From NCBI RefSeq assembly GCF_900066015.1, contig NZ_LN890655.1:1962726-2026725 (forward strand): 64,000 nucleotides of DNA. Reading direction: 5' to 3'. The number at the start of each line of letters is the position of its first letter. Position 1 is the first letter of the stretch. A program made the translations under genes and the position numbers. Under the pieces are notes generated by a model, which was not told where the DNA came from, ran no database searches, and saw nothing but the letters and a program-made list of their open reading frames with translations. This DNA is from Candidatus Promineifilum breve. Its GTDB lineage: Bacteria; Chloroflexota; Anaerolineae; Promineifilales; Promineifilaceae. Shown in pieces: positions 43,560 through 58,438 of this stretch.

Positions 43560-43560
43560 A

Positions 43561-43642
43561 TAATTACGAATTAGGAATTAGGAATTACGAAACCCACATC
43601 CCTCATCTTGAATTCCTAATTCCTAATTTTTAATTCCTAATT
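43561..43642. repeat. AATTAGG-family inverted repeat between nuoB and nuoC
   Basis: AATTAGG/AATTACG heptamers (43562-43591) and AATTCCT units (43610-43642) enclose an 18-base loop. The right arm ends at the GGAG ribosome-binding site of nuoC. The element fills the gap apart from that site. Confidence 0.92.
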
Positions 43643-43652
43643 GGAGAAAGGT

Positions 43653-44174
43653 ATGACACGGAACGACCTTGTAGTAGACAAGTTGCGGGCGGCCCTGGGG
43701 GCGGCCGTCGAGGAAATCAGTGATTTCCGCGACGAGCGCACGATCTTCGTGCCCAAGAACAAGCTCATCGAGACCTGCCGCCTGCTGCGCGACGATCCGG
43801 CGCTGCGCTACAACTTCCTGTCCGACATCGTGGCCGACGACTATCTGCCCGATTTCCCGCGCTTCGTCGTCAGCTATCACCTACTGTCCATGCCCAACAA
43901 GCACCGGCTGCGGCTGCGCGTCTGGGTCGATGATCCCGACGACGGCCCGCCGACCCTGGCCGACGTGTGGCCCATCGCCACCTGGCTGGAGATGGAAGTG
44001 TATGACCTGATGGGCGTGCGCTTCGCCGGCAACGGCAGCCTGCGCCGTCTCTTCCTGCCCGAAGATTGGCAAGGCCACCCGCTGCGCAAGGATTACCCTC
44101 TCGGCTATGAAGAGGTGCAGTTTTCCTTCAACTGGCAGGAGATCGACGCGAAGAAACCGTATGCGAAGCAGTGA
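43653..44174 (+). CDS. nuoC: NADH-quinone oxidoreductase subunit C
   Basis: The 173-residue protein contains ADDYLPDFPRFVVSYHLLSM, then DVWPIATWLEMEVYDLMGVR, then RLFLPEDWQGHPLRKDYPLG, the Complex1_30kDa signature. It packs against subunit D in the peripheral arm. The GGAGAAAGG ribosome-binding site directs the ATG at 43653. Its TGA stop is at the start of the following CAGTGGT repeat array. nuoC is separate from nuoD here, not fused. Confidence 0.94.
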   Translation: MTRNDLVVDKLRAALGAAVEEISDFRDERTIFVPKNKLIETCRLLRDDPALRYNFLSDIVADDYLPDFPRFVVSYHLLSMPNKHRLRLRVWVDDPDDGPPTLADVWPIATWLEMEVYDLMGVRFAGNGSLRRLFLPEDWQGHPLRKDYPLGYEEVQFSFNWQEIDAKKPYAKQ

Positions 44175-44240
44175 TCAGTGGTCCGTGGTCAGTGGTCAGT
44201 GGTCTGTAACTGACCACTGACCACAGACCACAGACCACTT
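44171..44240. repeat. CAGTGGT-family inverted repeat between nuoC and nuoD
   Basis: CAGTGGT/CCGTGGT heptamers (44176-44207) and the reverse complement ACCACTG/ACCACAG array (44211-44238) meet with almost no loop. The array starts within the nuoC stop region. A GGAG ribosome-binding site follows. Confidence 0.92.
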
Positions 44241-44257
44241 AAGCATTGGAGTTTGTT

Positions 44258-45520
44258 ATGGGAATAATGCTACCGCAAGCAAACCTAAGCCGGCAGGAAC
44301 TCAGCGTCGAGGAACTGCGGGCCAAGGTCGGCACGGGGATGGAGATCGCCGACGCCGAAGAGCACATGCTGCTGAGCATGGGGCCGCAACATCCCAGCAC
44401 CCACGGCGTGCTGCGCCTGCTGGTGGAACTGGACGGCGAGACGGTCGTCAACATGGCCCCCGACATCGGCTTCCTCCACACCGGCATCGAGAAGAACATG
44501 GAGTCCAAGACCTTCACCAAGGCGTTGGTGATGACCGACCGGATGGACTACCTGTCGCCGATGACCAACAACATGGTCTACATCATGGCCGTCGAGAAGC
44601 TGCTGGGCATCGAAATCACCCCGCGGGCACAGACCATTCGCCTGATATTGGCCGAGTTGTCGCGCCTGAGCAGTCATCTGGTGTGGCTGGGAACCCATGC
44701 CCTCGATCTGGCGGCTATGTCGGTCTTCCTCTATTGCTTCCGCGAGCGCGAATACATCCTCGACATTTACGAGATGGTCGCCGGGCAGCGCATGATGGTC
44801 AGCTATTTCCGGCCGGGCGGCCTGTGGCGCGACGTGCCCGATGAGTTCGAGCCGGCGGTGCGCAAGCTGCTGGACTTCATGCCGGCCAAGATCGCCGATT
44901 ACGAGGCGTTACTCGATAAAAACCCGATTTTCCTGGCGCGCACCAAGGACGTGGGCGCCATCTCCGGCGAGCAAGCCATCGCCTGGGGCCTTAGCGGGCC
45001 GAGTATGCGCGGCTCCGGCGTCGATTGGGACAACCGCCGCGACATGCCCTATGGCGGCTACGAAGCCTATGAGTTCGACGTGCCGGTGGAGCAGGAGGGC
45101 GACGTCTACGCCCGCTACCGCTGCCGGATGCGCGAGATGCGCGAATGTCTGCGCCTGCTCCGCCAGGGCCTCGACCGGCTGAAGCCCGGCCCGGTCAACA
45201 TCGACAATCACAAGATCGTGCCGCCGCCGCGGGCCGACCTCGGCCGCAGCATGGAGGCCGTCATCCACCACTTCAAGCTGTGGACGGAGGGCTTCAGCGC
45301 CCCCGTCGGCTACGTCTATCAGGTCATCGAATCGCCACGGGGCGAGATCGGCTGCTATTTGCGCGGCAACGGCGGCAACAAGCCGGCCCGCGTCCATTTT
45401 CGCGGCCCGTCCTACGTCAACCTGGCGTCGCTGCCGCTGATGTCGAAAAATCGCTTCATCGCCGACGTGGTGTCGATCATCGGTTCGATCGACATTGTCT
45501 TGGGTGAAATTGATAGATAG
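44258..45520 (+). CDS. nuoD: NADH-quinone oxidoreductase subunit D
   Basis: The 420-residue protein contains LLSMGPQHPSTHGVLRLLVE, the quinone-binding region with its conserved His; GFLHTGIEKNMESKTF; and the C-terminal GSIDIVLGEIDR. It forms the quinone pocket with subunit B. The ATG at 44258 has GGAG upstream. Length is in the usual range for the subunit. Downstream lies an inverted repeat, then nuoE. Confidence 0.95.
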   Translation: MGIMLPQANLSRQELSVEELRAKVGTGMEIADAEEHMLLSMGPQHPSTHGVLRLLVELDGETVVNMAPDIGFLHTGIEKNMESKTFTKALVMTDRMDYLSPMTNNMVYIMAVEKLLGIEITPRAQTIRLILAELSRLSSHLVWLGTHALDLAAMSVFLYCFREREYILDIYEMVAGQRMMVSYFRPGGLWRDVPDEFEPAVRKLLDFMPAKIADYEALLDKNPIFLARTKDVGAISGEQAIAWGLSGPSMRGSGVDWDNRRDMPYGGYEAYEFDVPVEQEGDVYARYRCRMREMRECLRLLRQGLDRLKPGPVNIDNHKIVPPPRADLGRSMEAVIHHFKLWTEGFSAPVGYVYQVIESPRGEIGCYLRGNGGNKPARVHFRGPSYVNLASLPLMSKNRFIADVVSIIGSIDIVLGEIDR

Positions 45521-45590
45521 TGGACAGTGGGTAGTGGATAGTTGACAGTTCAGAGTTACTGTCCACTATCCACTACCCACTATCCACTTC
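45517..45590. repeat. AGTGGAT-family inverted repeat between nuoD and nuoE
   Basis: TAGTGGACAGTGGG-type units (45517-45545) and their reverse complement ACTGTCCACTATCCAC (45558-45590) flank a short loop. The left arm runs over the nuoD stop. GGAG of nuoE follows within a few bases. Confidence 0.92.
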
Positions 45591-45604
45591 ACCGGAGAAG
45601 AGTT

Positions 45605-46162
45605 GTGCTAAGAGAAAAATACGCCAACGAAATCGACGCCTTGCTGACCCGTTTCCCGCAACGGAAATCGGCCGTGCTGCATCTGATGCACCTGGCCCAG
45701 AACGAATACGGCTACATGAGCGACGAGGCCATGCGCGAAGTGGCCGATATTCTCGATCTGGACCCGACCCACGTGCTGTCGCTGGCCGGCTTCTATTCGC
45801 TCTTCTACGAGGAGCCGACCGGCAAATACGTGCTGGAAATCTGCAACGACCTGGCCTGCGCCCTGCGCGGGGCGGATGAGTTCGTAGACATGGCCTCGCG
45901 CAAGCTCGACATTCCGGTGGAGGGCACGACCAACGACGGCCTGTTCACGCTCAAGAGTGTCATGTGCCTGGGGGCCTGCGACCGCGCGCCGATGCTGCAA
46001 TGCAACCTGAAGTTCTACGAGAACCTGGACGAAGCCAAATTTGTGGGGCTGATCGCTGAGCTACGGGCCAAGGCCGCCGGCGACAGCGAACCGTCCGTTG
46101 TCGAACGCATTATCGGCTATACCATAGAGGATCAGACCAACGCCAAGACGCAAAGCCGCTAA
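45605..46162 (+). CDS. nuoE: NADH-quinone oxidoreductase subunit E
   Basis: The 185-residue protein has the 2Fe-2S thioredoxin-like core: EICNDLACALRG near residue 80 (CxxxxC) and VMCLGACDRAPM near residue 122 (CxxxC). It belongs to the NADH-oxidising module. The GTG at 45605 is chosen because GGAGAAG stands seven bases before it. The last seven residues, NAKTQSR, are encoded by the CGCAAAG repeat that runs past the stop. Confidence 0.93.
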   Translation: MLREKYANEIDALLTRFPQRKSAVLHLMHLAQNEYGYMSDEAMREVADILDLDPTHVLSLAGFYSLFYEEPTGKYVLEICNDLACALRGADEFVDMASRKLDIPVEGTTNDGLFTLKSVMCLGACDRAPMLQCNLKFYENLDEAKFVGLIAELRAKAAGDSEPSVVERIIGYTIEDQTNAKTQSR

Positions 46163-46206
46163 GTTTTCTTGATCTTTGCGTCTTAGCGCCTTTGCGTTTT
46201 TCTTCA
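46139..46206. repeat. CGCAAAG inverted repeat overlapping the nuoE end
   Basis: CGCCAAGACGCAAAG (46141-46155) pairs with CTTTGCGTCTTAGCG (46174-46188) apart from one unpaired base in each arm. The left arm is the last coding segment of nuoE. A further CTTTGCG unit follows. Confidence 0.88.
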
Positions 46207-46218
46207 AGAGTAAAGAAT

Positions 46219-47484
46219 ATGGCATACGTACTGCTGCGAAACCGCGACATACCCGACCTCCACAAGCTGGACGTCTACCGCGACAACGGCGGCTATCAGG
46301 GGTTGAAGAATGCGCTGGCGATGACGCCGGCCGAGGTGATCGACGTGATGAAGGCGTCGAACCTGCGCGGCCGCGGCGGCGCGGGCTTCCCCACCGGGGC
46401 CAAGTGGAGCTTCATCCCCAAGAACGCGCCGGAGACCTACGTGCTGATCAACACCGACGAGTCGGAGACGGGCACGTTCAAGGATCGCGAGCTGATCGAG
46501 CGCAACCCGCATCAGGTCATCGAGGGGGCGCTCATCGCCTCCTATGCCGTCAATTCCAGGCTGGTCTTCAACTACATGCGCGGCGAGTACATGGATGCGG
46601 CCTACGCGTTCGAGGATGCGCTGCGCGAGTGCCGCGCGGCGGGCATCATCGGCCAGAATATTATGGGCAGCAACTACTCGGTGGAGTTCTATACCCACTA
46701 CGGCGCGGGGGCCTACATCTGCGGCGAAGAGACGGCGCTGATCGAGTCATTGGCCGGGAATCTGGGCCAGCCGTGGTCGAAGCCGCCCTTCCCGGCCGTC
46801 GAGGGCCTCTATCGCAAGCCGACCGTGGTCAACAACACCGAGACGCTGGCCAACGTGCCGCCCATCCTGGTCAATGGGCCGGACTGGTTCAAGACGATGG
46901 GCACGGCCGACAGCCCGGGCATGAAGATCGTCTGCGTCAGCGGCCACGTGGAAAAGCCGGGCAATTACGAAGTGCCTTTGGGCACGACCTACCGCCAATT
47001 GCTCGACATCGCCGGCGGTATGCGCGGCGGTAAGAAGTTCAAGGCCATCCTGCCCAGCGGCGGCTCCGGCCCGATTATCACCGAGAGCGCGCTCGACGCG
47101 GCCTGTAGCTATGAGGGGTTGACGCCGTTCCGCTCGGTCATGGGGTCGGCCTCGGTCATCGTCATGGACGAGACGACCGACATGGTCTGGGCGGCGCTGA
47201 AGATGATCCACTTCTTCCGCCATGAGTCGTGCGGCAAGTGTACGCCCTGCCGCGAGGGTACATTCTGGCTGGAGAAGGTGCTCCACCGCGTCTACCACGG
47301 CCACGGCACCGAGGGGGACATCAAACTGCTGGAGAGCATCGCCAACAACATGACCGGCAAGTGCCTGTGCGCCCTGGGCGAGTTCGCCACCAGCCCGGTG
47401 CTGTCTTCCATCGCCCACTTCCTGCCGGAGTATAAAGCGAAGGTGGCGGCGGGGGCGAAGAAGGTGGCGGTAGCGGCCGATTAG
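46219..47484 (+). CDS. nuoF: NADH-quinone oxidoreductase subunit F
   Basis: The 421-residue protein contains the NADH/FMN site LRGRGGAGFPTGAKWSFIPK, GAGAYICGEETALIESL, and the cluster motif ESCGKCTPCREGT with the later LCALGEFAT Cys. It oxidises NADH. The ATG at 46219 fits family length; the frame opens nine codons earlier without support. Downstream is an intruding Uma2 gene rather than nuoG. Confidence 0.95.
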   Translation: MAYVLLRNRDIPDLHKLDVYRDNGGYQGLKNALAMTPAEVIDVMKASNLRGRGGAGFPTGAKWSFIPKNAPETYVLINTDESETGTFKDRELIERNPHQVIEGALIASYAVNSRLVFNYMRGEYMDAAYAFEDALRECRAAGIIGQNIMGSNYSVEFYTHYGAGAYICGEETALIESLAGNLGQPWSKPPFPAVEGLYRKPTVVNNTETLANVPPILVNGPDWFKTMGTADSPGMKIVCVSGHVEKPGNYEVPLGTTYRQLLDIAGGMRGGKKFKAILPSGGSGPIITESALDAACSYEGLTPFRSVMGSASVIVMDETTDMVWAALKMIHFFRHESCGKCTPCREGTFWLEKVLHRVYHGHGTEGDIKLLESIANNMTGKCLCALGEFATSPVLSSIAHFLPEYKAKVAAGAKKVAVAAD

Positions 47485-47497
47485 GAAAGTAGACCAG

Positions 47498-47556
47498 TAA
47501 TTTTCAGGTCAGTATTCAGTAACCAGTTATCACGTCTGCAACGACCAACGACTAAC
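47498..47556. repeat. Degenerate CAGTA-type repeat remnant between nuoF and the Uma2 gene
   Basis: The segment contains GTAGACCAGTAA, CAGTATTCAGTAACC and ACGACCAACGACTAACAAC units, which look like decayed short tandem repeats. No clear long palindrome is visible. Confidence 0.45.
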
Positions 47557-47560
47557 AACA

Positions 47561-48160
47561 ATGGTAACGCGAGCGGCAACACCAACCATCATCGAGCGGC
47601 GCTGGACGGCGGCGGAGTATTTGCGGTTGCCCGAAGGGCCGCCTTATTATGAATTGGAAGACGGGGAGCTTATTGAGATGGTTCGACCGCGCGGAACACA
47701 TCAAAAAATCATCGGCCGGCTGTTCGCGCTATTGGATGAATTCATCGAACGTGGCAAGATTGGTGGAGTGTGGCCGGAAGTGGCCGTTCAGTTATCTCCC
47801 ACACGCATCTACATACCCGATTTGAGTTTTCTATTAACGGAAAACCTGAACCGCTTTGAAGAGGACGTCCTTATCCAGGGGCCGCCAGACCTGGTGGTGG
47901 AAGTTATTTCCCCATCGACAGCATCCCGCGACCGCTCACACAAGCTGCGTACCTATCGCGCGGCGGGTGTGCCCTGGTACTGGCTGGTGGAGAGCGACAC
48001 GCTGCTGATTACCGAGTATCGCCACACGCCCGACGGCTATCTGGTGAACCAGACGGCGGCGGCAACCGATGAATTCGCGCCGGCATTATTCCCCGGCCTG
48101 GCATTTCGCATGGCCGATTTGCTGGGGCCGACCGGCGCGGTGGAAGAAGTGCAAGAGTGA
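47561..48160 (+). CDS. Uma2 (DUF820)-family PD-(D/E)xK nuclease-like protein inside nuo
   Basis: The 199-residue protein contains WTAAEYLRLPEGPPYYELED, then YIPDLSFLLTENLNRF, then DLVVEVISPSTASRDRSHKL, then YRAAGVPWYWLVE. This is the Uma2 fold with the D...ExV/K active-site pattern. Uma2 proteins are abundant in cyanobacteria and Chloroflexota, with no firmly known role. It starts 76 bases after nuoF and stops three bases before nuoG, so it is part of the cluster. It has no obvious part in respiration. Confidence 0.85.
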   Translation: MVTRAATPTIIERRWTAAEYLRLPEGPPYYELEDGELIEMVRPRGTHQKIIGRLFALLDEFIERGKIGGVWPEVAVQLSPTRIYIPDLSFLLTENLNRFEEDVLIQGPPDLVVEVISPSTASRDRSHKLRTYRAAGVPWYWLVESDTLLITEYRHTPDGYLVNQTAAATDEFAPALFPGLAFRMADLLGPTGAVEEVQE

Positions 48161-48163
48161 TCT

Positions 48164-50752
48164 ATGAGTGACATGGTAACCTTGACGATTGACGGCGCGG
48201 AGATCTCCGTGCCCAAGGGAATGCTGGTCGTCGACGCGGCCAAGAAGATCGATATCGACATCCCGGTGTTCTGCTACCATCCCAAGCTGAACCCGGTCGG
48301 CATGTGCCGCATGTGTCTGGTGGAGATCGGCCTGCCGGTCATCGACCGGGCCACGGGGCAGAAAGTGCTGAACCCCGACGGCTCGGTGAAGCTGAACTTC
48401 GGCAAGGGGCTACAGACCGGCTGCACCGTCGTCGTCAGTGAGGGCATGGTCGTGCGCACGGCCACCGTGCCCGTCCAGGACGCCCGCGAGGACATCATCG
48501 AGTTCCTGCTGACCAGTCACCCGCTCGACTGCCCCGTCTGCGACAAGGGCGGCGAGTGCCCGCTGCAAAACCTGACCCTGGCCTACGGCCGCGACGAAAG
48601 CCGGATGGACTTCCGCGACAAGATGAAGCTGGCCAAGCACGTGCCGTTGGGCGAACTGATCGTCCTCGACCGCGAGCGCTGCATCCAATGCGCCCGTTGC
48701 ACCCGCTTCCAGGCCGAGATCGTCGATGACCCGGTCATCCATTTCCACAACCGCGGCCGGCGGCTGGAGATCGTCACCTTCAGCGACCCCGGCTTCGACA
48801 GCTATTGGAGCGGCAACACGACCGATATTTGCCCCGTGGGCGCGCTCACCTCGTCGGACTTCCGCTTCGAGGCTCGGCCGTGGGAACTGACGCCGGTTGC
48901 CAGCATCTGCCCCCACTGCCCCGTCGGCTGCAACACGACGATGAGCACCCGCCGCGAGGCCATCTCCGGCGGCCGTAACGTCATCAAGCGCATCATGCCC
49001 CGCCAGAACGAGGCCGTCAACGAGATCTGGATCTGCGACAAGGGGCGCTTCGTCCACCACTTCGCCGACGCGCCGGAGCGACTGACCCGGCCGCTGGTAC
49101 GGCGTGATAGTCGCCTGGAGCCGGTGTCGTGGGACGACGCGCTCGATTACGTGGCCGGCAAGCTGCAACAGCACAAGGGGGCCGCGGCCGGCATCGCCGG
49201 CGAACGGCTGAGCAACGAGGATTACTTCCAGTTCCAGCGCCTCTTCCGCCAGGGATTGGGCAGCGGCAACCTCGATCTGGCCGAGCGGCGACTGGCCGGC
49301 GGCGACGTGGTGGCCCAGGTGGGGCTGAGCCGCGGCAGCAACCTGCGAGACCTGAAGAAGGGCGACGTGATCCTGGTGGTGGCCGCCGATCTGCACGAGG
49401 AAGCGCCGGTGTGGTGGCTGCGCGTGAAGCAGGCCGCCGAGCGCGGCGCGACGCTGATCGTGCTGAATGCCCGCGCCACGCGGCTGGACAAATTCGCCCG
49501 CTATGCCCGGCATTACGCGCCGGGCGGGGCGCTGGCCGCGGCGCGCGAACTGCTGACGCTGGCCCACGTGGACACCGGCGCGCCCGAACCGGACAGCGCC
49601 GGGGCCGTGGCCGCCGCGCTGGTGGAAGCGGAAAATCTGGTCATCTTCTACGGCGCCGAGGGCCTGACCTACGACGAGAGCGACGCGCTGGCGCGGACGC
49701 TGGGCAATCTGCTGCTGCTGAAGCGGGGCGACGATGACACGGCCGCGTCCCACGCCGGGCGGCCCAATAACGGCCTGGTTCCCGTCTGGAGCCACGGCAA
49801 CACGCAGGGCGCGTGGGACATGGGCATCCACCCGGCGTTTGGCCCCGGCTATACGGCGGCGGCCAACCAGGGGCGCGGCGCGGCCGAGATTTACGCCGCC
49901 GCCGCCGAGGGGCGCGTCGAGGCGCTCTACGTCCTGGGCGCGGACCCGGTGGGCGACGGCCTGCTGCGCGCCAAGCCGGGCTTCCTCGTCGTCCAGGAGT
50001 TGTTCCTGACCGAGACGGCGGCGCTGGCCGACGTGGTGCTGCCCGCCCAGAGTTGGGCCGAGCGCGAAGGCACCTATACCAACGGCGAGCGGCGCGTGCA
50101 GCGCTTCTACCCGGCCATCGCCGCCATGGGCGAGGCGCGCCCCGACTGGCAAATCCTGGCCCAGATCGGCGAGCGGGTGGGGCTGGGCAAGCCGCCCTTC
50201 GCCGCCGCGCTGGTCTTCAAGGAGATCGCCGCCGTCGTGGCTCCCTATAAGGGGCTGGATTACCGGACGCTGGCCCACGTGGAAGCGCAATGGCCCATCG
50301 TTGGCGGCCCCGACCTGTATTTCGGCGGCACGGCCTATGCCAACCGGCAAGGGCTGGGGCAGCAGTGGGCAGCGGCGGCCGAGACGGGCGCGTTGCCCAG
50401 CTACGAGTTACCGCTCGACGGGCCGGCCGGGCGGAGTGGCGGCGGGCTGCGCGTGATGCGTATCCCCGCGCTCTATACGCCGGGCACGCTCATCGACCAT
50501 ACCGACCTGCTGAACCGGCGCATGGCGCGGCCGGCGCTCTATCTGAACCCGGCCGACGCGGGCTTGTATGCCGACGGCGAAGCCCTGACGGTGGCCGTGG
50601 GCGGCGAGAGTTTCGACGTGACGGCGACGATCAGCGACATGGCCCCGGCGGGCGTGGCGTTGCTGCGCGGTGTGCCCGGCGCGCACCCGCTGGGCATCGA
50701 GCCGGCTATCGTCAGTCGCCGGCCGGTGGCCGAGATGGCCGCGGCGGATTAA
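48164..50752 (+). CDS. nuoG: NADH-quinone oxidoreductase subunit G
   Basis: The 862-residue protein has an N-terminal 2Fe-2S domain (VFCYHPKLNPVGMCRMCLVE, with its later Cys), the His-Cys block HPLDCPVCDKGGECPLQ, a 4Fe-4S pair (CIQCARC and CPVGAL), and a molybdopterin-oxidoreductase-like domain starting CPHCPVGCN. It carries electrons from F to the peripheral arm. It begins three bases after the Uma2 stop, suggesting translational coupling with that gene. Confidence 0.94.
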   Translation: MSDMVTLTIDGAEISVPKGMLVVDAAKKIDIDIPVFCYHPKLNPVGMCRMCLVEIGLPVIDRATGQKVLNPDGSVKLNFGKGLQTGCTVVVSEGMVVRTATVPVQDAREDIIEFLLTSHPLDCPVCDKGGECPLQNLTLAYGRDESRMDFRDKMKLAKHVPLGELIVLDRERCIQCARCTRFQAEIVDDPVIHFHNRGRRLEIVTFSDPGFDSYWSGNTTDICPVGALTSSDFRFEARPWELTPVASICPHCPVGCNTTMSTRREAISGGRNVIKRIMPRQNEAVNEIWICDKGRFVHHFADAPERLTRPLVRRDSRLEPVSWDDALDYVAGKLQQHKGAAAGIAGERLSNEDYFQFQRLFRQGLGSGNLDLAERRLAGGDVVAQVGLSRGSNLRDLKKGDVILVVAADLHEEAPVWWLRVKQAAERGATLIVLNARATRLDKFARYARHYAPGGALAAARELLTLAHVDTGAPEPDSAGAVAAALVEAENLVIFYGAEGLTYDESDALARTLGNLLLLKRGDDDTAASHAGRPNNGLVPVWSHGNTQGAWDMGIHPAFGPGYTAAANQGRGAAEIYAAAAEGRVEALYVLGADPVGDGLLRAKPGFLVVQELFLTETAALADVVLPAQSWAEREGTYTNGERRVQRFYPAIAAMGEARPDWQILAQIGERVGLGKPPFAAALVFKEIAAVVAPYKGLDYRTLAHVEAQWPIVGGPDLYFGGTAYANRQGLGQQWAAAAETGALPSYELPLDGPAGRSGGGLRVMRIPALYTPGTLIDHTDLLNRRMARPALYLNPADAGLYADGEALTVAVGGESFDVTATISDMAPAGVALLRGVPGAHPLGIEPAIVSRRPVAEMAAAD

Positions 50753-50760
50753 GAAAATGA

Positions 50761-50855
50761 ATTAGCCACGGATTGACACGGATTCAACGGATTTTCACGG
50801 ATCAACGCATTCCGATCCTTGAAAATCCGTCATATCCGTGAAAATCCGTGTTTAA
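50761..50855. repeat. CACGGATT-family inverted repeat between nuoG and nuoH
   Basis: ACGGATT/CACGGAT units (50768-50802) and reverse-complement AATCCGT/ATCCGTG units (50823-50852) flank a short loop. GAGTGG before the nuoH ATG follows after about 20 bases. Related fragments lie at 17086 and 42641. Confidence 0.9.
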
Positions 50856-50879
50856 ATTATTAGTAGACAGGAGTGGCGT

Positions 50880-51983
50880 ATGACTCCAGGCGAGATCGCG
50901 ATTCGCGCCTTAATCATCGGCTTTATTATCAGCTTTGCCGTCATCACCGGCTTTGCCTACACCACGCTGCTGGAGCGCAAGGTGCTGGCCCGGCTACAGG
51001 CGCGCGTCGGCCCCAACCGGGCGGGCTATATCCCTGTGCCCTGGCGCGGCGGGGAGAAGCGCTTCCTGGGCGGCTTTCTGCAACCGGCGGCCGACGCCGT
51101 GAAGCTGTTCTTCAAGGAAGACCCCACCCCGGCCAAGGTCGATCGGGTCATCTATAACCTGGCCCCCATGCTGGCCGTCATCCCGGCTATCCTGATCCTG
51201 GCCGTCATTCCCTGGGCGCCGGCCTTTCGCCTCGGCCCGTGGCGCTTCACGCCCTATTTCGCCATCGCGCCGGGCATCAACGTCGGCGTGCTGTTCATCC
51301 TGGCCGTCACGTCCATCGGCGTCTATGGCGTGGTGTTGGCTGGGTGGGCGTCGAACAGCAAGTACGCTGTACTGGGCGGCATTCGCGCCTCGGCGCAGAT
51401 GATTAGCTACGAACTGGCGCTGGGCATTATCGTCCTCATCCCGATTATGATGGCGAACTCGATGGATTTGGGCCGCATCGTGGAGGCCCAGCGGCCGGTC
51501 TGGTTCATCTTTATCCAGCCGCTGGCGGCGCTGGTGTTCTACATCGCCGCGCTGGCCGAGTTGCAGCGCGCGCCGTTCGACCTGCTGGAGGCCGAGCAGG
51601 AGCTATCGGCCGGGTTCAACGTGGAGTATGCCGGGATGCGCTTCGGCATGTTCTTCATGGCCGAGTACATGAAGATGATCTCGCTCAGCGCTATTTTCGC
51701 CACGTTATTTTTGGGTGGCTTCGGCGGGCCGTTCGTCGACCGCTTCCCGTGGCTGGGCTTCATCTACATCATCGCCAAGATCATCGCCAGTCTGTTCGTG
51801 ATGATCTGGGTGCGGGCCTCGCTGCCGCGCCTCCGCTATGACCAATTGATGGGTTTCGGCTGGAAGGCGCTGCTGCCCATCGCCGTGCTCAATTTCCTGG
51901 TGACGGCCGTCGTCATCGTGATGTACGAGGAAGGTACACTGGCCCCGATTATCGAATCGGTGCGACTGTTCTTTACAGGCTAA
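50880..51983 (+). CDS. nuoH: NADH-quinone oxidoreductase subunit H
   Basis: The 367-residue protein has about eight membrane helices and family motifs VGPNRAGYIPVPWRGGEKRF, GWASNSKYAVLGGIRASAQM, and APFDLLEAEQELSAGFNVEY, with conserved charged loop residues. It forms the quinone channel with D and B. A GGAG upstream supports the ATG at 50880. Confidence 0.95.
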   Translation: MTPGEIAIRALIIGFIISFAVITGFAYTTLLERKVLARLQARVGPNRAGYIPVPWRGGEKRFLGGFLQPAADAVKLFFKEDPTPAKVDRVIYNLAPMLAVIPAILILAVIPWAPAFRLGPWRFTPYFAIAPGINVGVLFILAVTSIGVYGVVLAGWASNSKYAVLGGIRASAQMISYELALGIIVLIPIMMANSMDLGRIVEAQRPVWFIFIQPLAALVFYIAALAELQRAPFDLLEAEQELSAGFNVEYAGMRFGMFFMAEYMKMISLSAIFATLFLGGFGGPFVDRFPWLGFIYIIAKIIASLFVMIWVRASLPRLRYDQLMGFGWKALLPIAVLNFLVTAVVIVMYEEGTLAPIIESVRLFFTG

Positions 51984-51994
51984 CACGTGTGACG

Positions 51995-52057
51995 CGTTGC
52001 GAGCGACGAGAAACGAGCGAAGAACGCTCTGCATTCGTCATTCGTAATTCGTCATTA
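51995..52057. repeat. Repeat segment between nuoH and nuoI
   Basis: A GCGAGCGACGAGAAACGAGC stretch (51999-52018) is followed by an ATTCGTC/ATTCGTA half-array (52031-52057), the reverse complement of the GAATGAC family. AAGGAG of nuoI follows. Only one arm of the element is present. Confidence 0.75.
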
Positions 52058-52068
52058 AGGAGTCCCGC

Positions 52069-52569
52069 ATGATCGGTGAGATTCTCAAAGGCATGGGCAC
52101 GACGCTGAAGCATATGTTTCAGCCGCCGGTGACGATCCAATACCCGGAGGTGGAGCGGCCGGTGCGCAAGCGCTTCAAGGGCCGCCACGAACTGAAGCGG
52201 TATGATAACGGGCTGGAACGCTGCATCGGCTGTTCACTGTGCGCCGCGGCTTGCCCGGCCGACGCCATCTTCGTGGAGGCGGCCGAGAATACCGACGCCG
52301 AACGCTACTCGCCCGGCGAGCGCTACGCCCGCGTCTACGAGATCAACATGATGCGCTGCATCTTCTGCGGCTATTGCGAGGATGCCTGCCCCACCCAAGC
52401 CATTGTGCTGGAGCACGAATATGAACTGAGCTTCTACGACCGGGCCAGCTCGATCTATACCAAAGGGATGCTACTGGTCGATATCCCGATCAACGGCATC
52501 CCCACGCCCCAGGCCAGCGAGCCGGGCGTCTACACGCGGTCGATACCGGACATGGAAAACCCGAAATGA
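52069..52569 (+). CDS. nuoI: NADH-quinone oxidoreductase subunit I
   Basis: The 166-residue protein contains two ferredoxin motifs, [12 protein letters not shown] and [12 protein letters not shown], ligating two 4Fe-4S clusters (N6a and N6b). It passes electrons to subunit B. AAGGAG supports the ATG at 52069. Its TGA stop is overlapped by the following repeat. Confidence 0.95.
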
Positions 52570-52641
52570 ATTACGAATTACGAATTAGGAATTAGGAATT
52601 ACGAATTTCAATTCCTAATTCCTAATTCGTAATTCGTAATT
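52568..52641. repeat. AATTACG-family inverted repeat between nuoI and nuoJ
   Basis: AATTACG/AATTAGG heptamers (52568-52605) and AATTCCT/AATTCGT units (52610-52641) meet across a few bases. The array overlaps the nuoI stop and ends 16 bases before nuoJ. Confidence 0.92.
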
Positions 52642-52657
52642 GCCATAAGGCGGCTTT

Positions 52658-53185
52658 ATGATTCATCCGATACCCTTCATTTTTCTGGCGGCCGTCGCTG
52701 TCGGCGCCGCGTTGGGCATGTTGTTGAGCCGCAATGCCGTCCATAGCGCGCTCTATCTGGTGCTCAACTTTATGACGGTGGCCGTCTTCTATCTGGCCCT
52801 CAACGCGCCGTTCATCGCCCTGGTGCAGATCACGGTCTATGCCGGGGCTATCGTGGTGCTGTTCCTGTTCGTCATCATGCTGCTGGGAGCCGACCGCTTG
52901 CGCGGCGCGGCCGACGACGTGCGCGGCGGCGAACGCTACCACCGTTATACGGCCGTGGCTCTGGCCCTGGTGCTGGTGGGCGTCATCGGCTACCTGCTTC
53001 TGCAAAACGACCTGGGCGGGGTGGCCCTCAGCCCGACCATCGACGCCAGCCCGCAGGCATTGGGCATGGCCCTCTTCCAGGGCTACGTGCTGCCGTTCCA
53101 GGTGACGGGCGTATTGCTACTGGCGGCCATCGTCGGCGTCGTCATCTTCGGCCACACCAAGAAGGGAGGGAAAGAAAATGCCTAG
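52658..53185 (+). CDS. nuoJ: NADH-quinone oxidoreductase subunit J
   Basis: The 175-residue protein has about five membrane helices: [40 protein letters not shown], then [10 protein letters not shown], and a C-terminal [14 protein letters not shown]. The conserved V-x-Y-x-G-A-I segment is present. It belongs to the membrane arm. Its 3' end overlaps nuoK by eight bases and carries the nuoK ribosome-binding site. Confidence 0.93.
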
Positions 53186-53489
53186 CGCGGTCACAATCAA
53201 CTGGTACATCGCCCTCAGCGGCATCCTGTTCGCCATCGGCGCGCTGGGCGTGCTGTTGCGGCGCAACGCCATCATTCTGTTCATGTCGGTCGAGTTGATG
53301 CTCAACAGCGCCAACCTGCTGTTCGTGGCCTTTGCCCGCCATCTGGGCCGGCTGGACGGGCAGGTGCTGGTCTTTTTCGTCATCACCGTGGCCGCGGCCG
53401 AGGTGGCCGTGGGCCTGGCGCTGATCGTCGCCATCTTCCGCACCAAGAAGAGCATCAATATTGATGAGATTAATCTGTTGAAAGGCTGA
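53178..53489 (+). CDS. nuoK: NADH-quinone oxidoreductase subunit K
   Basis: The 103-residue protein has three helices, including [16 protein letters not shown]-type residues seen as [20 protein letters not shown] with the conserved Glu, and [20 protein letters not shown] with the second membrane Glu. It is part of the proton-moving membrane arm. GGAGGGAAAG upstream lies inside nuoJ. Confidence 0.94.
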
Positions 53490-53491
53490 AA

Positions 53492-53561
53492 GAGACCACA
53501 GACCACGGACAGCAGACCGCACGACCGCTGTCCGTCGTCTGCCGTCCGCGGTCTGTGGTCG
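53492..53561. repeat. GACCACAG-family inverted repeat between nuoK and nuoL
   Basis: GACCACAGACCACGGACAGC (53494-53513) pairs with GTCCGCGGTCTGTGGTC (53544-53560). Related to the CAGTGGT element at 44171-44240. A CGGAG site for nuoL follows. Confidence 0.88.
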
Positions 53562-53573
53562 TTCGGAGCATTT

Positions 53574-55895
<2,322 letters not shown>

Positions 55896-55898
<3 letters not shown>

Positions 55899-55977
55899 TC
55901 GTTATCGCCATCGCAATCGCTGTCGTAGTCGAAGATCGATTACGACAGCGATTGCGATTGCGATAGCGATTGTGATA
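55896..55977. repeat. GCGATT/GCGATA-family inverted repeat between nuoL and nuoM
   Basis: ATCGCCATCGCAATCGCTGT (55908-55927) and its near reverse complement GCGATTGCGATTGCGATAGC (55949-55968) flank a short loop. The element begins at the nuoL stop. The GCGATA half-array at 34456-34482 is related. Confidence 0.9.
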
Positions 55978-55996
55978 AAAAAGGACGGGGAACACT

Positions 55997-57508
55997 ATGA
56001 ACTGGCTATTAACGATTCTCACCTTCCTTCCCCTGGTGGGCGTTCTGGCGATTTTATTCTTGAAAGAGACGGACGAACCGTCGAGCCGCAACACGATCAA
56101 GATCGTCGCCATCGCCACCTCGGCGGCCACGCTGGTGGTGTCGCTGATGGTGCTATGGCGCTTCGACGCGAGTAATCCGGCGCTGCAACTGGTCGACCGC
56201 TTCGACTGGATCCCGGCCTGGGGCATCAGCTACTTCCTGGGGATCGATGGCCTGAGCATCCTCATGGTGCTGCTGACGACGTTCATCTCCCTGCTGGCGA
56301 TTATCGGGTCGTGGACGGCCATCGAGATGCAACTCAAGCAGTACTACATCTTCATGCTGCTGTTGGAGATGGGTATGCTGGGCGTCTTTCTGGCCCAGGA
56401 CTTATTCCTGTTCTACATCTTCTGGGAGTTCACGCTCATCCCGATGTACTTCCTCATCGGCATTTGGGGCGGCAGCCGGCGCGTCTATGCGTCGATCAAG
56501 TTCTTCCTGTACACGATGGCCGCCTCGCTGCTGATGCTGGTCGCCATCCTCTACATGGGCATCACCAACGGCACATTCGCCCTGCCCGACCTCATCGCCG
56601 GGCGCGATCTCTTTGCCCATGCCCAGAACCTGCTGTTCATCGGCTTCTTCCTGGCCTTCGCCGTCAAGGTGCCGATCTTTCCCTTCCATTCGTGGCTGCC
56701 CGACGCCCACACCGAGGCACCCACGGCCGGGTCGATCATCCTGGCCGGTGTGTTGCTGAAGATGGGCACCTATGGCCTCATCCGCTTCAACCTGCCGCTC
56801 TTCCCGGAGGCGGCCTACAAGTACGCGCCGTTTATCGCCGTGCTGGCGATCATCGGCATCATCTACGGGGCCATCGTCTCCTTCCCCCAGAAGGACGTGA
56901 AGAAGCTGGTGGCCTACTCCAGTATCAGCCATCTGGGCTTCGTCACGCTGGGCATCTTCGCCCTGAACAATGCCGGCATCCAGGGGGCCATCCTGCAAGG
57001 GGTGAACCACGGCCTGAGCACGGGCGCGCTGTTTTTCCTGGTCGGCGTGCTCTATGAGCGCACCCACACGCGCGAGATGTCGGAGTACGGCGGGGTGTGG
57101 AAGATCATGCCCGTTTTCAGCGTCCTGTCGCTCATCGTCGTGCTGTCGAGCATGGGCCTGCCCGGCCTCAACGGCTTCGTGGGCGAGTTCACCATCCTGC
57201 TCGGCTCGATGGGGGCCGAATCGCTGGCGCCGCGGCCGTGGATCTACACCGCCTTCGCCACCACCGGCGTCATCCTGGCCGCCGTCTACCTGCTGTGGAT
57301 GTTCCAGCGGGTGTTCATGGGGCCGGCCATCAGCGAGAAGGTGAAGGGTCTGAAGGAGATGAACCGCATGGAGATGGCGATCATGCTGGCCTTCCTGGTC
57401 TTCATCTTCTGGATCGGCATCGCCCCGTCGGCCTACTTCCACTTGATGGACGGGACGGTCAGTGCGCTGGTAGACAATATCAGTCAGGCCGTCTTGGCGA
57501 TGCGCTAG
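55997..57508 (+). CDS. nuoM: NADH-quinone oxidoreductase subunit M
   Basis: The 503-residue protein has the antiporter-like core: YIFWEFTLIPMYFLIGIWGG with the conserved Glu, VKVPIFPFHSWLPDAHTEAP, and KKLVAYSSISHLGFVTLGIF. LSSMGLPGLNGFVGEFTILL follows. It is a proton-pumping subunit. In most clusters nuoN follows, but here a metallophosphoesterase gene does. The upstream GCGATA palindrome separates it from nuoL. Confidence 0.95.
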   Translation: MNWLLTILTFLPLVGVLAILFLKETDEPSSRNTIKIVAIATSAATLVVSLMVLWRFDASNPALQLVDRFDWIPAWGISYFLGIDGLSILMVLLTTFISLLAIIGSWTAIEMQLKQYYIFMLLLEMGMLGVFLAQDLFLFYIFWEFTLIPMYFLIGIWGGSRRVYASIKFFLYTMAASLLMLVAILYMGITNGTFALPDLIAGRDLFAHAQNLLFIGFFLAFAVKVPIFPFHSWLPDAHTEAPTAGSIILAGVLLKMGTYGLIRFNLPLFPEAAYKYAPFIAVLAIIGIIYGAIVSFPQKDVKKLVAYSSISHLGFVTLGIFALNNAGIQGAILQGVNHGLSTGALFFLVGVLYERTHTREMSEYGGVWKIMPVFSVLSLIVVLSSMGLPGLNGFVGEFTILLGSMGAESLAPRPWIYTAFATTGVILAAVYLLWMFQRVFMGPAISEKVKGLKEMNRMEMAIMLAFLVFIFWIGIAPSAYFHLMDGTVSALVDNISQAVLAMR

Positions 57509-57511
57509 TAA

Positions 57512-57586
57512 TTGACAATTAGGAATTAGGAATTAGGAATTAGGAACTATTCTTCATTCCTAATTCCTAATTCATAATTCCTAATT
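57512..57586. repeat. AATTAGG-family inverted repeat up to the next start codon
   Basis: AATTAGG heptamers (57518-57546) and AATTCCT/AATTCAT units (57556-57586) enclose a short loop. The last repeat unit runs directly into the ATG of the metallophosphoesterase gene. Confidence 0.92.
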
Positions 57587-58438
57587 ATGCCGCCGGTCTA
57601 CTTCGTCCATCTCAGCGACACCCATTTCGGCCCGACGGAGGGCTATTCGCGGCAGGGGCATCGCTCGTTGCCCTACGCGCGGCACGTGATCGACCTGATC
57701 AACAACCTGCCGACGCGGCCGGATTTCGTTGTCCACACCGGCGACGTGACCACCCACCCCACCGAGGCCGCCTACCGGCTGGCGGCCGAGACGTTCGCCG
57801 CCCTTGACGCCCCCATCTACTACTGCACGGGCAACCACGACCGCTCTTCGGACATCCACCGCTACCTGCCGATGGGGCCAAAGGAAGATTGCCAGCCGGG
57901 CACGGACACCCTCTCCTACACCTTCGAAGTCCGCGGCGAGCGCTTTCTGGTGCTCGACGCCCGCGGCCCCGATCAGATCGACCCCCACGGGCTGCTGTCG
58001 GCCCAGCAGATGGACGTGCTGCGGCGCGAGGCCACGCCCGACGGCCCGCCGCTGACCATCTTCACCCACTACCCCACCCTGCGCCTCAACGCGCCGTGGA
58101 TGGACGCCAACATGCTCATCTTCAACGGCGAAGAGATGCACCAGGCGCTGCTGCCGGCGCGCGGGCGGCTGCGGGGCGTGTTCTACGGCCACATCCACAA
58201 CTCCATGCAGACCTGGCGCGACGGCATCCTCTACTGCGCCGCGGCCAGCACCTTCGCCGGCTTCACCACCTGGCCGACCGAGGAGATGATCCGCGCCGAC
58301 CACGACGCCATGCCGGCCTTCAACTTCGTGCAACTGCTGCCCGACCAGACGATTGTGCAGCAGCGGCCGTTTGCCCGGCTGGTGGGTGAGCCGGTTCGGC
58401 GGACGAAGGAGAATGATTCGGGGAGTTTGGAGGATTGA
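57587..58438 (+). CDS. Calcineurin-like metallophosphoesterase
   Basis: The 283-residue protein contains VHLSDTHFGP (DxH), VVHTGDVTTHP (GDxx), YYCTGNHDRSSD (GNHD), FTHYPTL and YGHIHNSM (GHxH), the complete set of metal-binding motifs of calcineurin-type phosphoesterases. It may hydrolyse a cyclic nucleotide or phosphodiester; the Icc/CpdA-like pattern suggests this. The start codon has no ribosome-binding site: a tandem repeat occupies that place. Confidence 0.85.
   Translation: MPPVYFVHLSDTHFGPTEGYSRQGHRSLPYARHVIDLINNLPTRPDFVVHTGDVTTHPTEAAYRLAAETFAALDAPIYYCTGNHDRSSDIHRYLPMGPKEDCQPGTDTLSYTFEVRGERFLVLDARGPDQIDPHGLLSAQQMDVLRREATPDGPPLTIFTHYPTLRLNAPWMDANMLIFNGEEMHQALLPARGRLRGVFYGHIHNSMQTWRDGILYCAAASTFAGFTTWPTEEMIRADHDAMPAFNFVQLLPDQTIVQQRPFARLVGEPVRRTKENDSGSLED

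What the first reader, a model, noticed from the sequence alone, without database searches (positions are those of the whole stretch)
43560..57586. Each gap over 50 bp in the nuo cluster is filled by a short-tandem-repeat element, usually an inverted repeat
Gaps nuoB-C, C-D, D-E, E-F, G-H, H-I, I-J, K-L, L-M and M-next each contain a short-tandem-repeat element. Most are inverted, with arms of about 15-40 bases around a short loop. The families differ: AATTAGG (B-C, I-J, M-next), CAGTGGT (C-D), AGTGGAT (D-E), CGCAAAG (E-F), CACGGATT (G-H), ATTCGTC (H-I, half only), GACCACAG (K-L), GCGATT (L-M). nuoF-Uma2 holds a decayed remnant. In most cases the element begins at or inside the upstream stop and ends just before the downstream ribosome-binding site. 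Predicted mRNA hairpins therefore separate the cistrons. Short tandem repeats are known in cyanobacteria, but such systematic occupation of one operon is striking. It could set mRNA stability, processing or subunit ratios, or reflect an insertion process that targets intercistronic gaps.
Basis: partly seen in the sequence, partly recalled or inferred. Interest (0 to 1): 0.82.

Follow-up and report, generated by a model that had tools for sequence, protein, structure and literature searches.

The report
Genome-wide repeat hairpins after gene ends
The gaps between the genes for respiratory complex I in this Chloroflexota bacterium are filled with hairpins built from short repeats, but the same kind of element sits in most medium-sized gaps sampled behind other genes and changes quickly between related species, so it looks like a spreading repeat element and not like special wiring of this operon.

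Summary
Of 11 nuo gaps over 50 bp, 10 carry a significant tandem array. RNA folding gives a strong hairpin in 9, and in a tenth (E-F) once the end of nuoE is included. Most elements start at the upstream stop codon and end before the ribosome-binding site.

The nuo-specific reading does not hold. In 1.24 Mb of the same genome, 129 of 208 same-strand gaps of 51-150 bp and 43 of 51 convergent ones carry such elements, against 6 of 19 divergent ones: the pattern of a 3'-end-associated element. nuo is denser than average in tandem arrays, but this was noticed after the fact. In seven congeners 24 of 42 nuo gaps over 50 bp are occupied. At shared gene pairs, occupancy does not correlate significantly between species and families are often exchanged. 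Arm mismatches show no G-U bias, so selection on the RNA hairpin was not detected.

Best reading: REP-like or STRR-like hairpin elements that spread and turn over, kept where they do least harm. The host belongs to Promineifilum (Chloroflexota). Open puzzle: one word, AATTA(C/G)G in tandem, recurs in other phyla while its reversed form was found in neither of two phyla sampled. Novelty: a new variant of a known kind.

The parts
43562..43642 (.). nuoB-nuoC element: AATTASG heptamer arrays, inverted (hairpin 43562-43635, loop 24)
   Evidence: (z -5.0)
44169..44239 (.). nuoC-nuoD element: CAGTGGT/GGTCNGT heptamer arrays, inverted; overlaps the nuoC stop codon
   Evidence: (z -7.5)
45516..45588 (.). 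nuoD-nuoE element: AGTGGAT heptamer arrays, inverted; overlaps the nuoD stop codon
   Evidence: (z -8.8)
46145..46200 (.). nuoE-nuoF element: CGCAAAG-type hairpin whose 5' arm lies in the last codons of nuoE and supplies its stop
   Evidence: (z -4.0)
47539..47559 (.). nuoF-Uma2 gap: short array only, no hairpin (decayed or partial element)
   Evidence: (z -0.3)
50756..50861 (.). nuoG-nuoH element: ACGGATT-type repeats, inverted
   Evidence: (z -6.6)
51990..52056 (.). nuoH-nuoI element: GACGAAT / ATTCGTC heptamers, degenerate 5' arm, still folds; loop with GAGCGAAGAACGCTC
   Evidence: (z -3.3); ungapped inverted-repeat score not significant (p 0.17)
52568..52641 (.). nuoI-nuoJ element: AATTASG heptamer arrays, perfect 32-bp arms, loop 9; begins in the nuoI stop codon
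   Evidence: (z -12.6)
53493..53560 (.). nuoK-nuoL element: GACCACAG-type arrays, inverted (opposite polarity to most families)
   Evidence: (z -6.0)
55897..55977 (.). nuoL-nuoM element: AATCGC/GCGATT hexamer arrays, inverted, loop 3
   Evidence: (z -10.0)
57517..57586 (.). Element between nuoM and the next gene (57587-58438, not scanned): AATTAGG arrays, inverted, ends at the next ATG
   Evidence: (z -10.5)
54809..54842 (+). GCAGGGGA octamer array inside nuoL, within an in-frame insertion of about 35 aa absent from five congeners

Best explanation
These are members of several families of dispersed repeat elements: two arms of short tandem units (mostly 7-9 nt, sometimes 6 or 10) in inverted order around a short loop. 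They spread through the genome and turn over quickly. How it most likely works: (1) Copies or new arrays arise by an unidentified DNA-level process; the sharing of words between loci, species and, for some words, phyla argues for copying of pre-existing words and not for fresh slippage each time (inferred). (2) Unit number and variants then change by slippage and exchange (inferred). (3) Purifying selection removes insertions in coding sequence, promoters and ribosome-binding sites, so survivors sit just after stop codons, in same-strand and convergent gaps (the distribution is shown, the cause inferred). (4) In the nuo transcript the survivors fold into hairpins between cistrons (predicted). 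They may affect transcript ends and prevent translational coupling, as a side effect and not as a conserved design (inferred). nuo looks complete because most gaps over about 80 bp in this compact genome hold an element.
For: Occupancy by orientation in 1.24 Mb, nuo left out: same-strand 51-150 bp 129 of 208 (62%), convergent 43 of 51 (84%), divergent 6 of 19 (32%). If each gene 3' end carries an element with probability 0.62, 86% of convergent gaps should have one (my arithmetic). Same-strand occupancy rises with gap length: 6 of 35 at 30-50 bp, 21 of 56 at 51-80, 108 of 152 at 81-150. Hairpins start a median 10 nt after the stop and end a median 43 nt before the next start (n = 103). Single words are dispersed: 218 AATTASG hits, 163 CAGTGG hits and 92 CACAGATT hits in G000, overlapping hits counted, reversed controls 0. 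The pattern GAAACCGRGTTT...AAACYCGGTTTC occurs at 95 places, control 0. Turnover: the I-J gap has an 88-bp element here, 18 bp without element in G006, overlapping genes in G007, and by eye other families in G002, G004 and G005. At 69 shared gaps G000 and G006 show both 21, G000 only 24, G006 only 8, neither 16 (p = 0.32), and by a word list only 2 of 21 doubly occupied gaps share a family. Smaller sets with G003 (22 gaps), G004 (13) and G001 (10) give p = 1. Species differ in load: tandem in 39 of 101 same-strand gaps of 56-127 bp in G000 against 4 of 45 in G006. Elements also enter genes: nuoL insertion, nuoE tail.
Against: nuo is denser than the controls (tandem p = 0.0014 and both p = 0.010; 0.001 and 0.0008), and every congener gap over 50 bp at I-J (4 of 4; G002 borderline, p 0.03) and M-next (5 of 5) has a hairpin, of differing families by eye; this would fit local demand for a hairpin. 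The B-C gap carries AATTASG-like units in all four congeners where it could be read (by eye). A first, smaller ortholog set leaned towards correlated occupancy (both 11, G000 only 14, G006 only 1, neither 9, p = 0.11). Where G000 is occupied the orthologous G006 gap is not shorter (median 95 bp, 4 of 45 at 30 bp or less), so plain insertion into a short gap is not what most pairs show; replaced or decayed elements have to be assumed. No enzyme was identified. The word list misses some families, so 2 of 21 is a lower bound; by eye six to eight pairs share a hairpin, several of them terminator-like.
Confidence: 0.72

Rival explanations
1. Selected intercistronic hairpins: each nuo gap keeps a hairpin because it stabilises, processes or punctuates the polycistronic mRNA and sets subunit ratios; the sequence family does not matter.
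For: Strong predicted hairpins in 9-10 of 11 gaps, stop-proximal position with the ribosome-binding site mostly free, hairpins at I-J in 4 of 4 and M-next in 5 of 5 congener gaps over 50 bp with differing families, higher density in nuo than in other operon-internal gaps. Transcript stability or translational coupling has been suggested for heptamer hairpins between hupS and hupL (PMC2670836, passages seen).
Against: No excess of G-U over A-C arm mismatches on the transcribed strand (62 against 68). No significant correlation of occupancy at 69 orthologous gaps (p = 0.32). 18 of 42 congener nuo gaps over 50 bp unoccupied, and 17 further ones at most 50 bp long.
Confidence: 0.15
2. REPIN-type mobile elements moved by a REP-associated tyrosine transposase (RAYT).
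For: REP elements show the same genomic placement (unidirectional and convergent gaps, next to gene 3' ends; PMC3733652, section read), and REPINs are inverted doublets that fold into hairpins (PMC3116915, abstract seen). G000 has three Y1_Tnp matches. GTAG stands near an end of 13 of 207 hairpins against 4 for the reversed motif; 9 of these 13 are among the 87 hairpins without tandem arms, so a minority could be REPs.
Against: Only 4 of 120 tandem-armed hairpins have GTAG and none CGTC near an end. The best RAYT-like gene (L216) is flanked by a different, non-tandem palindrome. Y1_Tnp count does not visibly follow element load: G006 has 2 and few tandem elements; the sample is eight genomes, several incomplete.
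Confidence: 0.1
3. In-place origin: each element grew where it stands by replication slippage, and the second arm was made or corrected by template switching (quasi-palindrome correction).
For: Unit order is partly mirrored between arms (z = 5.3, against 11 for a simulated copy-plus-mutation control).
Against: The same words recur at many loci and in other species with reversed-pattern controls at 0 for AATTASG, CACAGATT and GAAACCGRGTTT; independent slippage would not be expected to choose the same words. The elements had been selected for high hairpin score, which inflates the mirror signal, and an earlier version that allowed shifted registers found no significant excess.
Confidence: 0.12
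4. A reverse transcriptase or telomerase-like enzyme adds purine-rich repeats to broken ends, and two extended ends fuse head to head.
For: Polarity: purine-rich unit strand 5' of the loop in 76 of 83 tandem-armed hairpins; within 11 of 12 word families one orientation takes all or most cases. Three clear nested hairpins.
Against: No RVT_1 match in the 99.96% complete G000, which has the highest counts among the congeners searched for four words, all taken from G000 itself. Unit order partly mirrored. Two word families break the polarity (GCGATT 0:4, GGTCNGT 2:3).
Confidence: 0.03

Closest known systems
STRR sequences of cyanobacteria (heptamer arrays that form hairpins between hupS and hupL; PMC2670836, two passages seen)
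   Same: 7-bp tandem units, hairpin-forming, in intercistronic gaps, one of them near the 3' end of the upstream gene; function unknown, stability or coupling proposed
   Different: Different phylum; 6-, 8-, 9- and 10-nt families too; occupancy measured over a quarter of the genome here; turnover between congeners shown
Repeats in the extended hyp operon of Nostoc PCC 7120 (PMC2408588, passages seen)
   Same: Six intergenic regions of one gene cluster hold short dispersed repeats of different families, some palindromic; transposition considered
   Different: Predicted hairpins there are short (-1.3 to -10.5 kcal/mol); here -23 to -57 kcal/mol in ten nuo gaps (other program, so only roughly comparable)
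REP / REPIN elements (PMC3733652 abstract and one section; PMC3116915 abstract and outline)
   Same: Palindromic, dispersed, between same-strand and convergent genes, next to gene 3' ends, sometimes inside ORFs, hairpin in ssDNA or mRNA
   Different: No GTAG/CGTC tag in most, arms made of tandem units, no linked RAYT found
TAACTGA direct repeats of Beggiatoaceae, cyanobacteria and Bacteroidetes (PMC4679880, abstract and one section)
   Same: Intergenic heptamer arrays of one word in distant phyla, horizontal spread suspected, no mechanism known
   Different: Direct, not inverted; mostly just upstream of start codons in BOGUAY, while these sit after stop codons
trnL intron P6b stem of Nostoc (PMC4476775, introduction and passages)
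   Same: Hairpin whose stem is built on degenerate heptamers; one repeat class can be replaced by another with the structure kept
   Different: A single locus inside a self-splicing intron

Membership tests
Cyanobacterial STRR | tandem units of about 7 bp, dispersed through the genome | tested here: met
   in 464 kb of G000, coding sequence included, 59 of 136 arrays have period 7, 32 period 8, 22 period 6, 22 period 9; dispersed words
Cyanobacterial STRR | hairpin formation in intercistronic gaps | tested here: met
Cyanobacterial STRR | host is a cyanobacterium | tested here: not met
   congener G002 shares contigs and positions with the record titled Promineifilum sp. SSF11; that this genus is Chloroflexota is recalled
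REP (GTAG/CGTC super-families) | GTAG or CGTC tag at one end of the palindrome | tested here: not met
   GTAG 13 and CGTC 1 of 207 hairpins; 4 and 0 of 120 tandem-armed; reversed GATG 4. A minority of the non-tandem hairpins could be REPs
REP (GTAG/CGTC super-families) | placement between same-strand and convergent genes, near gene 3' ends | tested here: met
REPIN | linked RAYT flanked by the same element | tested here: not met
   L216 RAYT-like gene flanked by another palindrome; L223 shows none, L227 has an ACGGAT hairpin about 1 kb away; about 1.5 kb on each side of the match was looked at
REPIN | inverted doublet is the unit that moves | tested here: inconclusive
   same hairpin types at many loci but unit order differs; no transposition intermediate could be looked for
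Intrinsic terminators | T-tract directly after the stem | tested here: not met
   5 or more T in 8 nt after 12 of 74 tandem-armed and 17 of 60 other hairpins, so some of the others may be terminators; no clear excess of terminator-like sites in the nuo region (16 against 12.4 +/- 3.5)
Known RNA families (Rfam 15) | match above gathering score | tested here: not met
   21 matches at E <= 0.1, none at its gathering score
TAACTGA-type heptamer repeats | direct repeats next to start codons | tested here: not met
   inverted and stop-proximal

The most novel reading that the evidence does not exclude
A sequence-specific process, shared by distant phyla, writes a common set of short repeat words as head-to-head arrays with the purine-rich strand leading into the loop. 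It can fire again inside the loop of an existing hairpin (nested elements) and marks gene 3' ends genome-wide. The AATTA(C/G)G word recurs in Chloroflexota and Cyanobacteria while its reversed form was found in none of the genomes sampled there, and a GAAACCGRGTTT hairpin is shared by Promineifilum and Planktothrix.
Probability: 0.12. Interest if true: 0.85.

Novelty: new variant of a known kind. Interest (0 to 1): 0.47.

Why it matters
In the sampled quarter of a Chloroflexota genome, about 60% of same-strand and over 80% of convergent gaps of 51-150 bp carry hairpin-forming repeat elements, and congeners differ in load and carry empty or differently filled sites. This turns an old cyanobacterial curiosity (STRR) into something that can be traced by comparison: which sites fill, which families replace which, and whether the same words have travelled between phyla. 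It also warns that an apparently designed operon architecture can be the residue of a genome-wide insertion process.

Tried and rejected
Tried and rejected. (1) nuo-specific architecture: genome-wide controls and congeners speak against it. (2) Arms as exact copies or fully independent: a first test that allowed shifted registers found no significant mirror order, a fixed-register test found z = 9.2 but is biased by register choice, a re-run of the hairpin finder gave an intermediate z = 5.3 against 11 for the copy control; left open. (3) Reverse-transcriptase origin: no RVT_1 in G000. (4) RAYT origin: see the membership table. (5) A shared dictionary for all words: CAGTGGN x3 occurs in 6 of 43 outgroup genomes (80 hits in Atlanticothrix, 23 in one Planctomycetota genome) but the reversed control in 2 of 43, and the CACAGATT word in 0 of 43; so the cross-phylum claim rests on AATTASG and weakly on the GAAACCGRGTTT hairpin (2 of 43, control 0). 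The 43 outgroups had been chosen because they carry AATTASG. (6) A common loop core GAAGARCG: 7 of 134 hairpin centres, 0 in outer parts, about 0.5 expected from its density (my arithmetic); real but too rare to define the elements. (7) Hairpins at AATTASG sites of other phyla: 11 of 94 sites in 80 loci by a fixed rule, so the inverted form is not general. (8) Rfam: 19 of the 21 weak matches are microRNA families below cut-off, chance matches to any long hairpin.

Rows dropped before counts: in the genome-wide tables gaps next to genes with coding score under 30 and gaps outside 30-400 bp (30-500); divergent gaps and pairs whose longer gap was outside 40-300 bp (G006: 113 adjacent pairs, 69 kept); the A-B and J-K gaps and gaps over 300 bp. 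Of 36 relatives with a NuoH match the loci of 20 were fetched. The gene caller is my own and was not checked against an annotation. The G000 sample is not fully random: of 1.24 Mb, 680 kb is one stretch around the window.
Full report
What was checked. The nuo region was re-read and ten gene products were scanned with NCBIfam. The window is C1:1962726-2026725 of a 5.03-Mb, 3-contig, 99.96% complete genome, here G000. A congener, G002, has the same contigs and positions as the genome behind locus L059, titled Promineifilum sp. SSF11, so the host belongs to that genus; that the genus is Chloroflexota is recalled.

The observation. For each of the 11 nuo gaps over 50 bp, tandem and inverted-repeat scores were compared with 100 dinucleotide shuffles. 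10 of 11 have a tandem array, 8 of 11 an ungapped inverted repeat, 10 of 11 either. RNA folding gives z from -3.3 to -12.6 in 9 of 11. The weak E-F gap becomes a full hairpin (z -4.0) when the end of nuoE is included. Its 5' arm forms the last codons of nuoE, whose product is 8-10 residues longer than in four congeners. F-Uma2 keeps only a short array. The significant inverted repeats begin at the stop codon, and seven of the eight end 13-27 nt before the next start; the last one ends at the ATG.

Is it special to nuo? Genes were called in 864 kb and then 1.24 Mb of G000. Outside nuo, same-strand gaps of 51-150 bp are occupied in 129 of 208 cases, convergent in 43 of 51, divergent in 6 of 19. 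Among operon-internal gaps of 56-127 bp outside nuo, 25 of 43 are occupied (15 tandem, 21 hairpin, 11 both). nuo, with 11 gaps (10 either, 10 tandem, 8 hairpin, 8 both), is denser in tandem arrays (p = 0.0014) and in both together (p = 0.010), not clearly in either (p = 0.07). Against all same-strand gaps of that length in 864 kb (101 gaps: 39 tandem, 42 hairpin, 21 both, 60 either) the values are 0.001, 0.0008 and 0.05. These tests are post hoc, since the cluster was picked because it looked striking. Occupancy rises with gap length, so a rule that selects gaps over 50 bp selects elements.

Anatomy. The genome holds at least a dozen word families: AATTASG, CAGTGG, GGTCNGT, GTRGCGR, GACGAAT, CTAGGKK, GCAGGGG, CACAGATT, CGCAGATT, ACGGATT, CACAGAG, CGCAAAG, GCGATT, plus non-tandem palindromes such as GAAACCGRGTTT. 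In tandem-armed hairpins the purine-rich strand stands 5' of the loop in 76 of 83, in others in 48 of 74. By word family the strand listed (chosen by me as the purine-rich one) leads 13:0, 20:0, 15:0, 32:7, 4:1, 8:0, 3:0, 12:0, 15:0, 11:0 and 2:0, with GCGATT 0:4 as the exception; GGTCNGT is mixed, 2:3. Hairpins start a median 10 nt after the upstream stop and end 43 nt before the next start (n = 103); 12 of 74 tandem-armed and 17 of 60 other hairpins have a T-tract. Unit order is partly mirrored between the arms. Three hairpins hold another family's hairpin in their centre by rule (its fourth row is an overlap of words), and two more by eye.

Relatives. nuo loci of seven congeners and thirteen family members were fetched and gaps delimited with the window's proteins. 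In congeners 24 of 42 nuo gaps over 50 bp are occupied, and 17 further gaps are at most 50 bp; in the other family members 35 of 52 are occupied and 47 are short. The I-J gap shows the turnover: 88 bp here, 18 bp in G006, overlap in G007, by eye other families in G002, G004 and G005. B-C keeps AATTASG-like units in all four congeners where it was read (by eye). I-J and M-next have hairpins in 4 of 4 and 5 of 5 congener gaps over 50 bp (I-J of G002 borderline, p 0.03), the best lead for a local function. For 69 orthologous gaps between G000 and G006 occupancy is both 21, G000 only 24, G006 only 8, neither 16 (p = 0.32; a first set of 35 gave p = 0.11); by a word list 2 of 21 doubly occupied gaps share a family, by eye six to eight share a hairpin. 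G003, G004 and G001, with 22, 13 and 10 gaps, give p = 1. Species differ in load: tandem arrays in 39 of 101 gaps in G000, 4 of 45 in G006.

Selection on the RNA? If the transcript hairpin were maintained, arm mismatches on the transcribed strand should favour G-U over A-C. They do not: 62 against 68 in all same-strand hairpins (138 other mismatches), 44 against 58 in tandem-armed ones. This test has limited power but gives no support.

Other phyla. With a built-in reversed control it occurs in 7 of 201 genomes of the window's phylum, two of them G000 and its congener G004 (control 0), and in 12 of 97 of the phylum of a Nostoc genome besides that preselected centre (control 0). The GAAACCGRGTTT hairpin pattern occurs at 95 places in G000, in all other congeners except G001, at 10 places in a Planktothrix genome and 1 in Atlanticothrix, control 0. 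CAGTGG is shared less clearly and CACAGATT not at all in the 43 outgroups.

Origin. No reverse transcriptase (RVT_1) was found in G000. Three Y1_Tnp genes exist, but the best is flanked by another palindrome and their number does not visibly follow the element load. REP tags are mostly absent, though GTAG (13 of 207) exceeds its reversed control (4), 9 of the 13 in hairpins without tandem arms.

Literature, as seen. PMC2670836 (two passages) states that heptamer STRR hairpins, found between hupS and hupL, are not unusual in filamentous cyanobacteria, with unknown function. PMC2408588 (passages) describes different dispersed repeats in six intergenic regions of the Nostoc hyp cluster. PMC3733652 (abstract and the section on genome distribution) and PMC3116915 (abstract, outline) describe REP and REPIN elements. 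PMC4679880 (abstract and one section) describes TAACTGA heptamers in three groups of bacteria. PMC4476775 (introduction and passages) describes heptamer-built stems in trnL. One search joining Chloroflexi with repeat terms listed 10 of 13 papers, and no listed title was about such elements in Chloroflexi; this is weak evidence of absence.

Verdict. Real, striking to the eye, and mostly explained: a genome-wide, 3'-end-associated, fast-changing set of hairpin repeat elements, a new variant of the STRR/REP kind. What remains open is the process that makes and moves them and why the same words recur across phyla.

Noticed in passing
window 54809-54842 (inside nuoL): GCAGGGGA octamer array within an in-frame insertion of about 35 aa in a His-rich loop of NuoL; absent from five congeners.
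   Followed up: yes
window 46145-46162 (end of nuoE): The last codons and the stop of nuoE lie in the 5' arm of the E-F hairpin, and the protein is 8-10 residues longer than in four congeners.
   Followed up: yes
   Followed up: partly
L015:17966, L179:12001, L194:12790 (also L191:9922, L180:7818 by eye): Hairpins of one repeat family nested in the centre of a hairpin of another family.
   Followed up: partly
G000 hairpin centres, e.g. L188:15555, L193:623, L180:9594, L185:5282; also window 52015-52029 (H-I gap, not among the 134): A GAAGARCG / CGYTCTTC core recurs in loops of different arm families: 7 of 134 centres, 0 in outer parts.
   Followed up: partly
L216 (G000:C2:284376-284717): RAYT-like Y1_Tnp gene flanked by a separate palindrome family (AACCGGCTGAAGCCGGTT, GGCGGGTTTGAACCCGCC), perhaps a REP-like system of its own.
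   Followed up: partly
G000:C1:2942900-2943823: A second NuoH-like protein (48% identity) in G000, perhaps from a second complex I or a relative.
   Followed up: no
window 26830-27116: A 123-bp repeat, 2.3 copies, within the long ORF 25446-29051.
   Followed up: no
L189:2881: A long inverted repeat of about 90-nt arms with CCCTCTCCC / GGGAGAGGG motifs in an intergenic gap.
   Followed up: no
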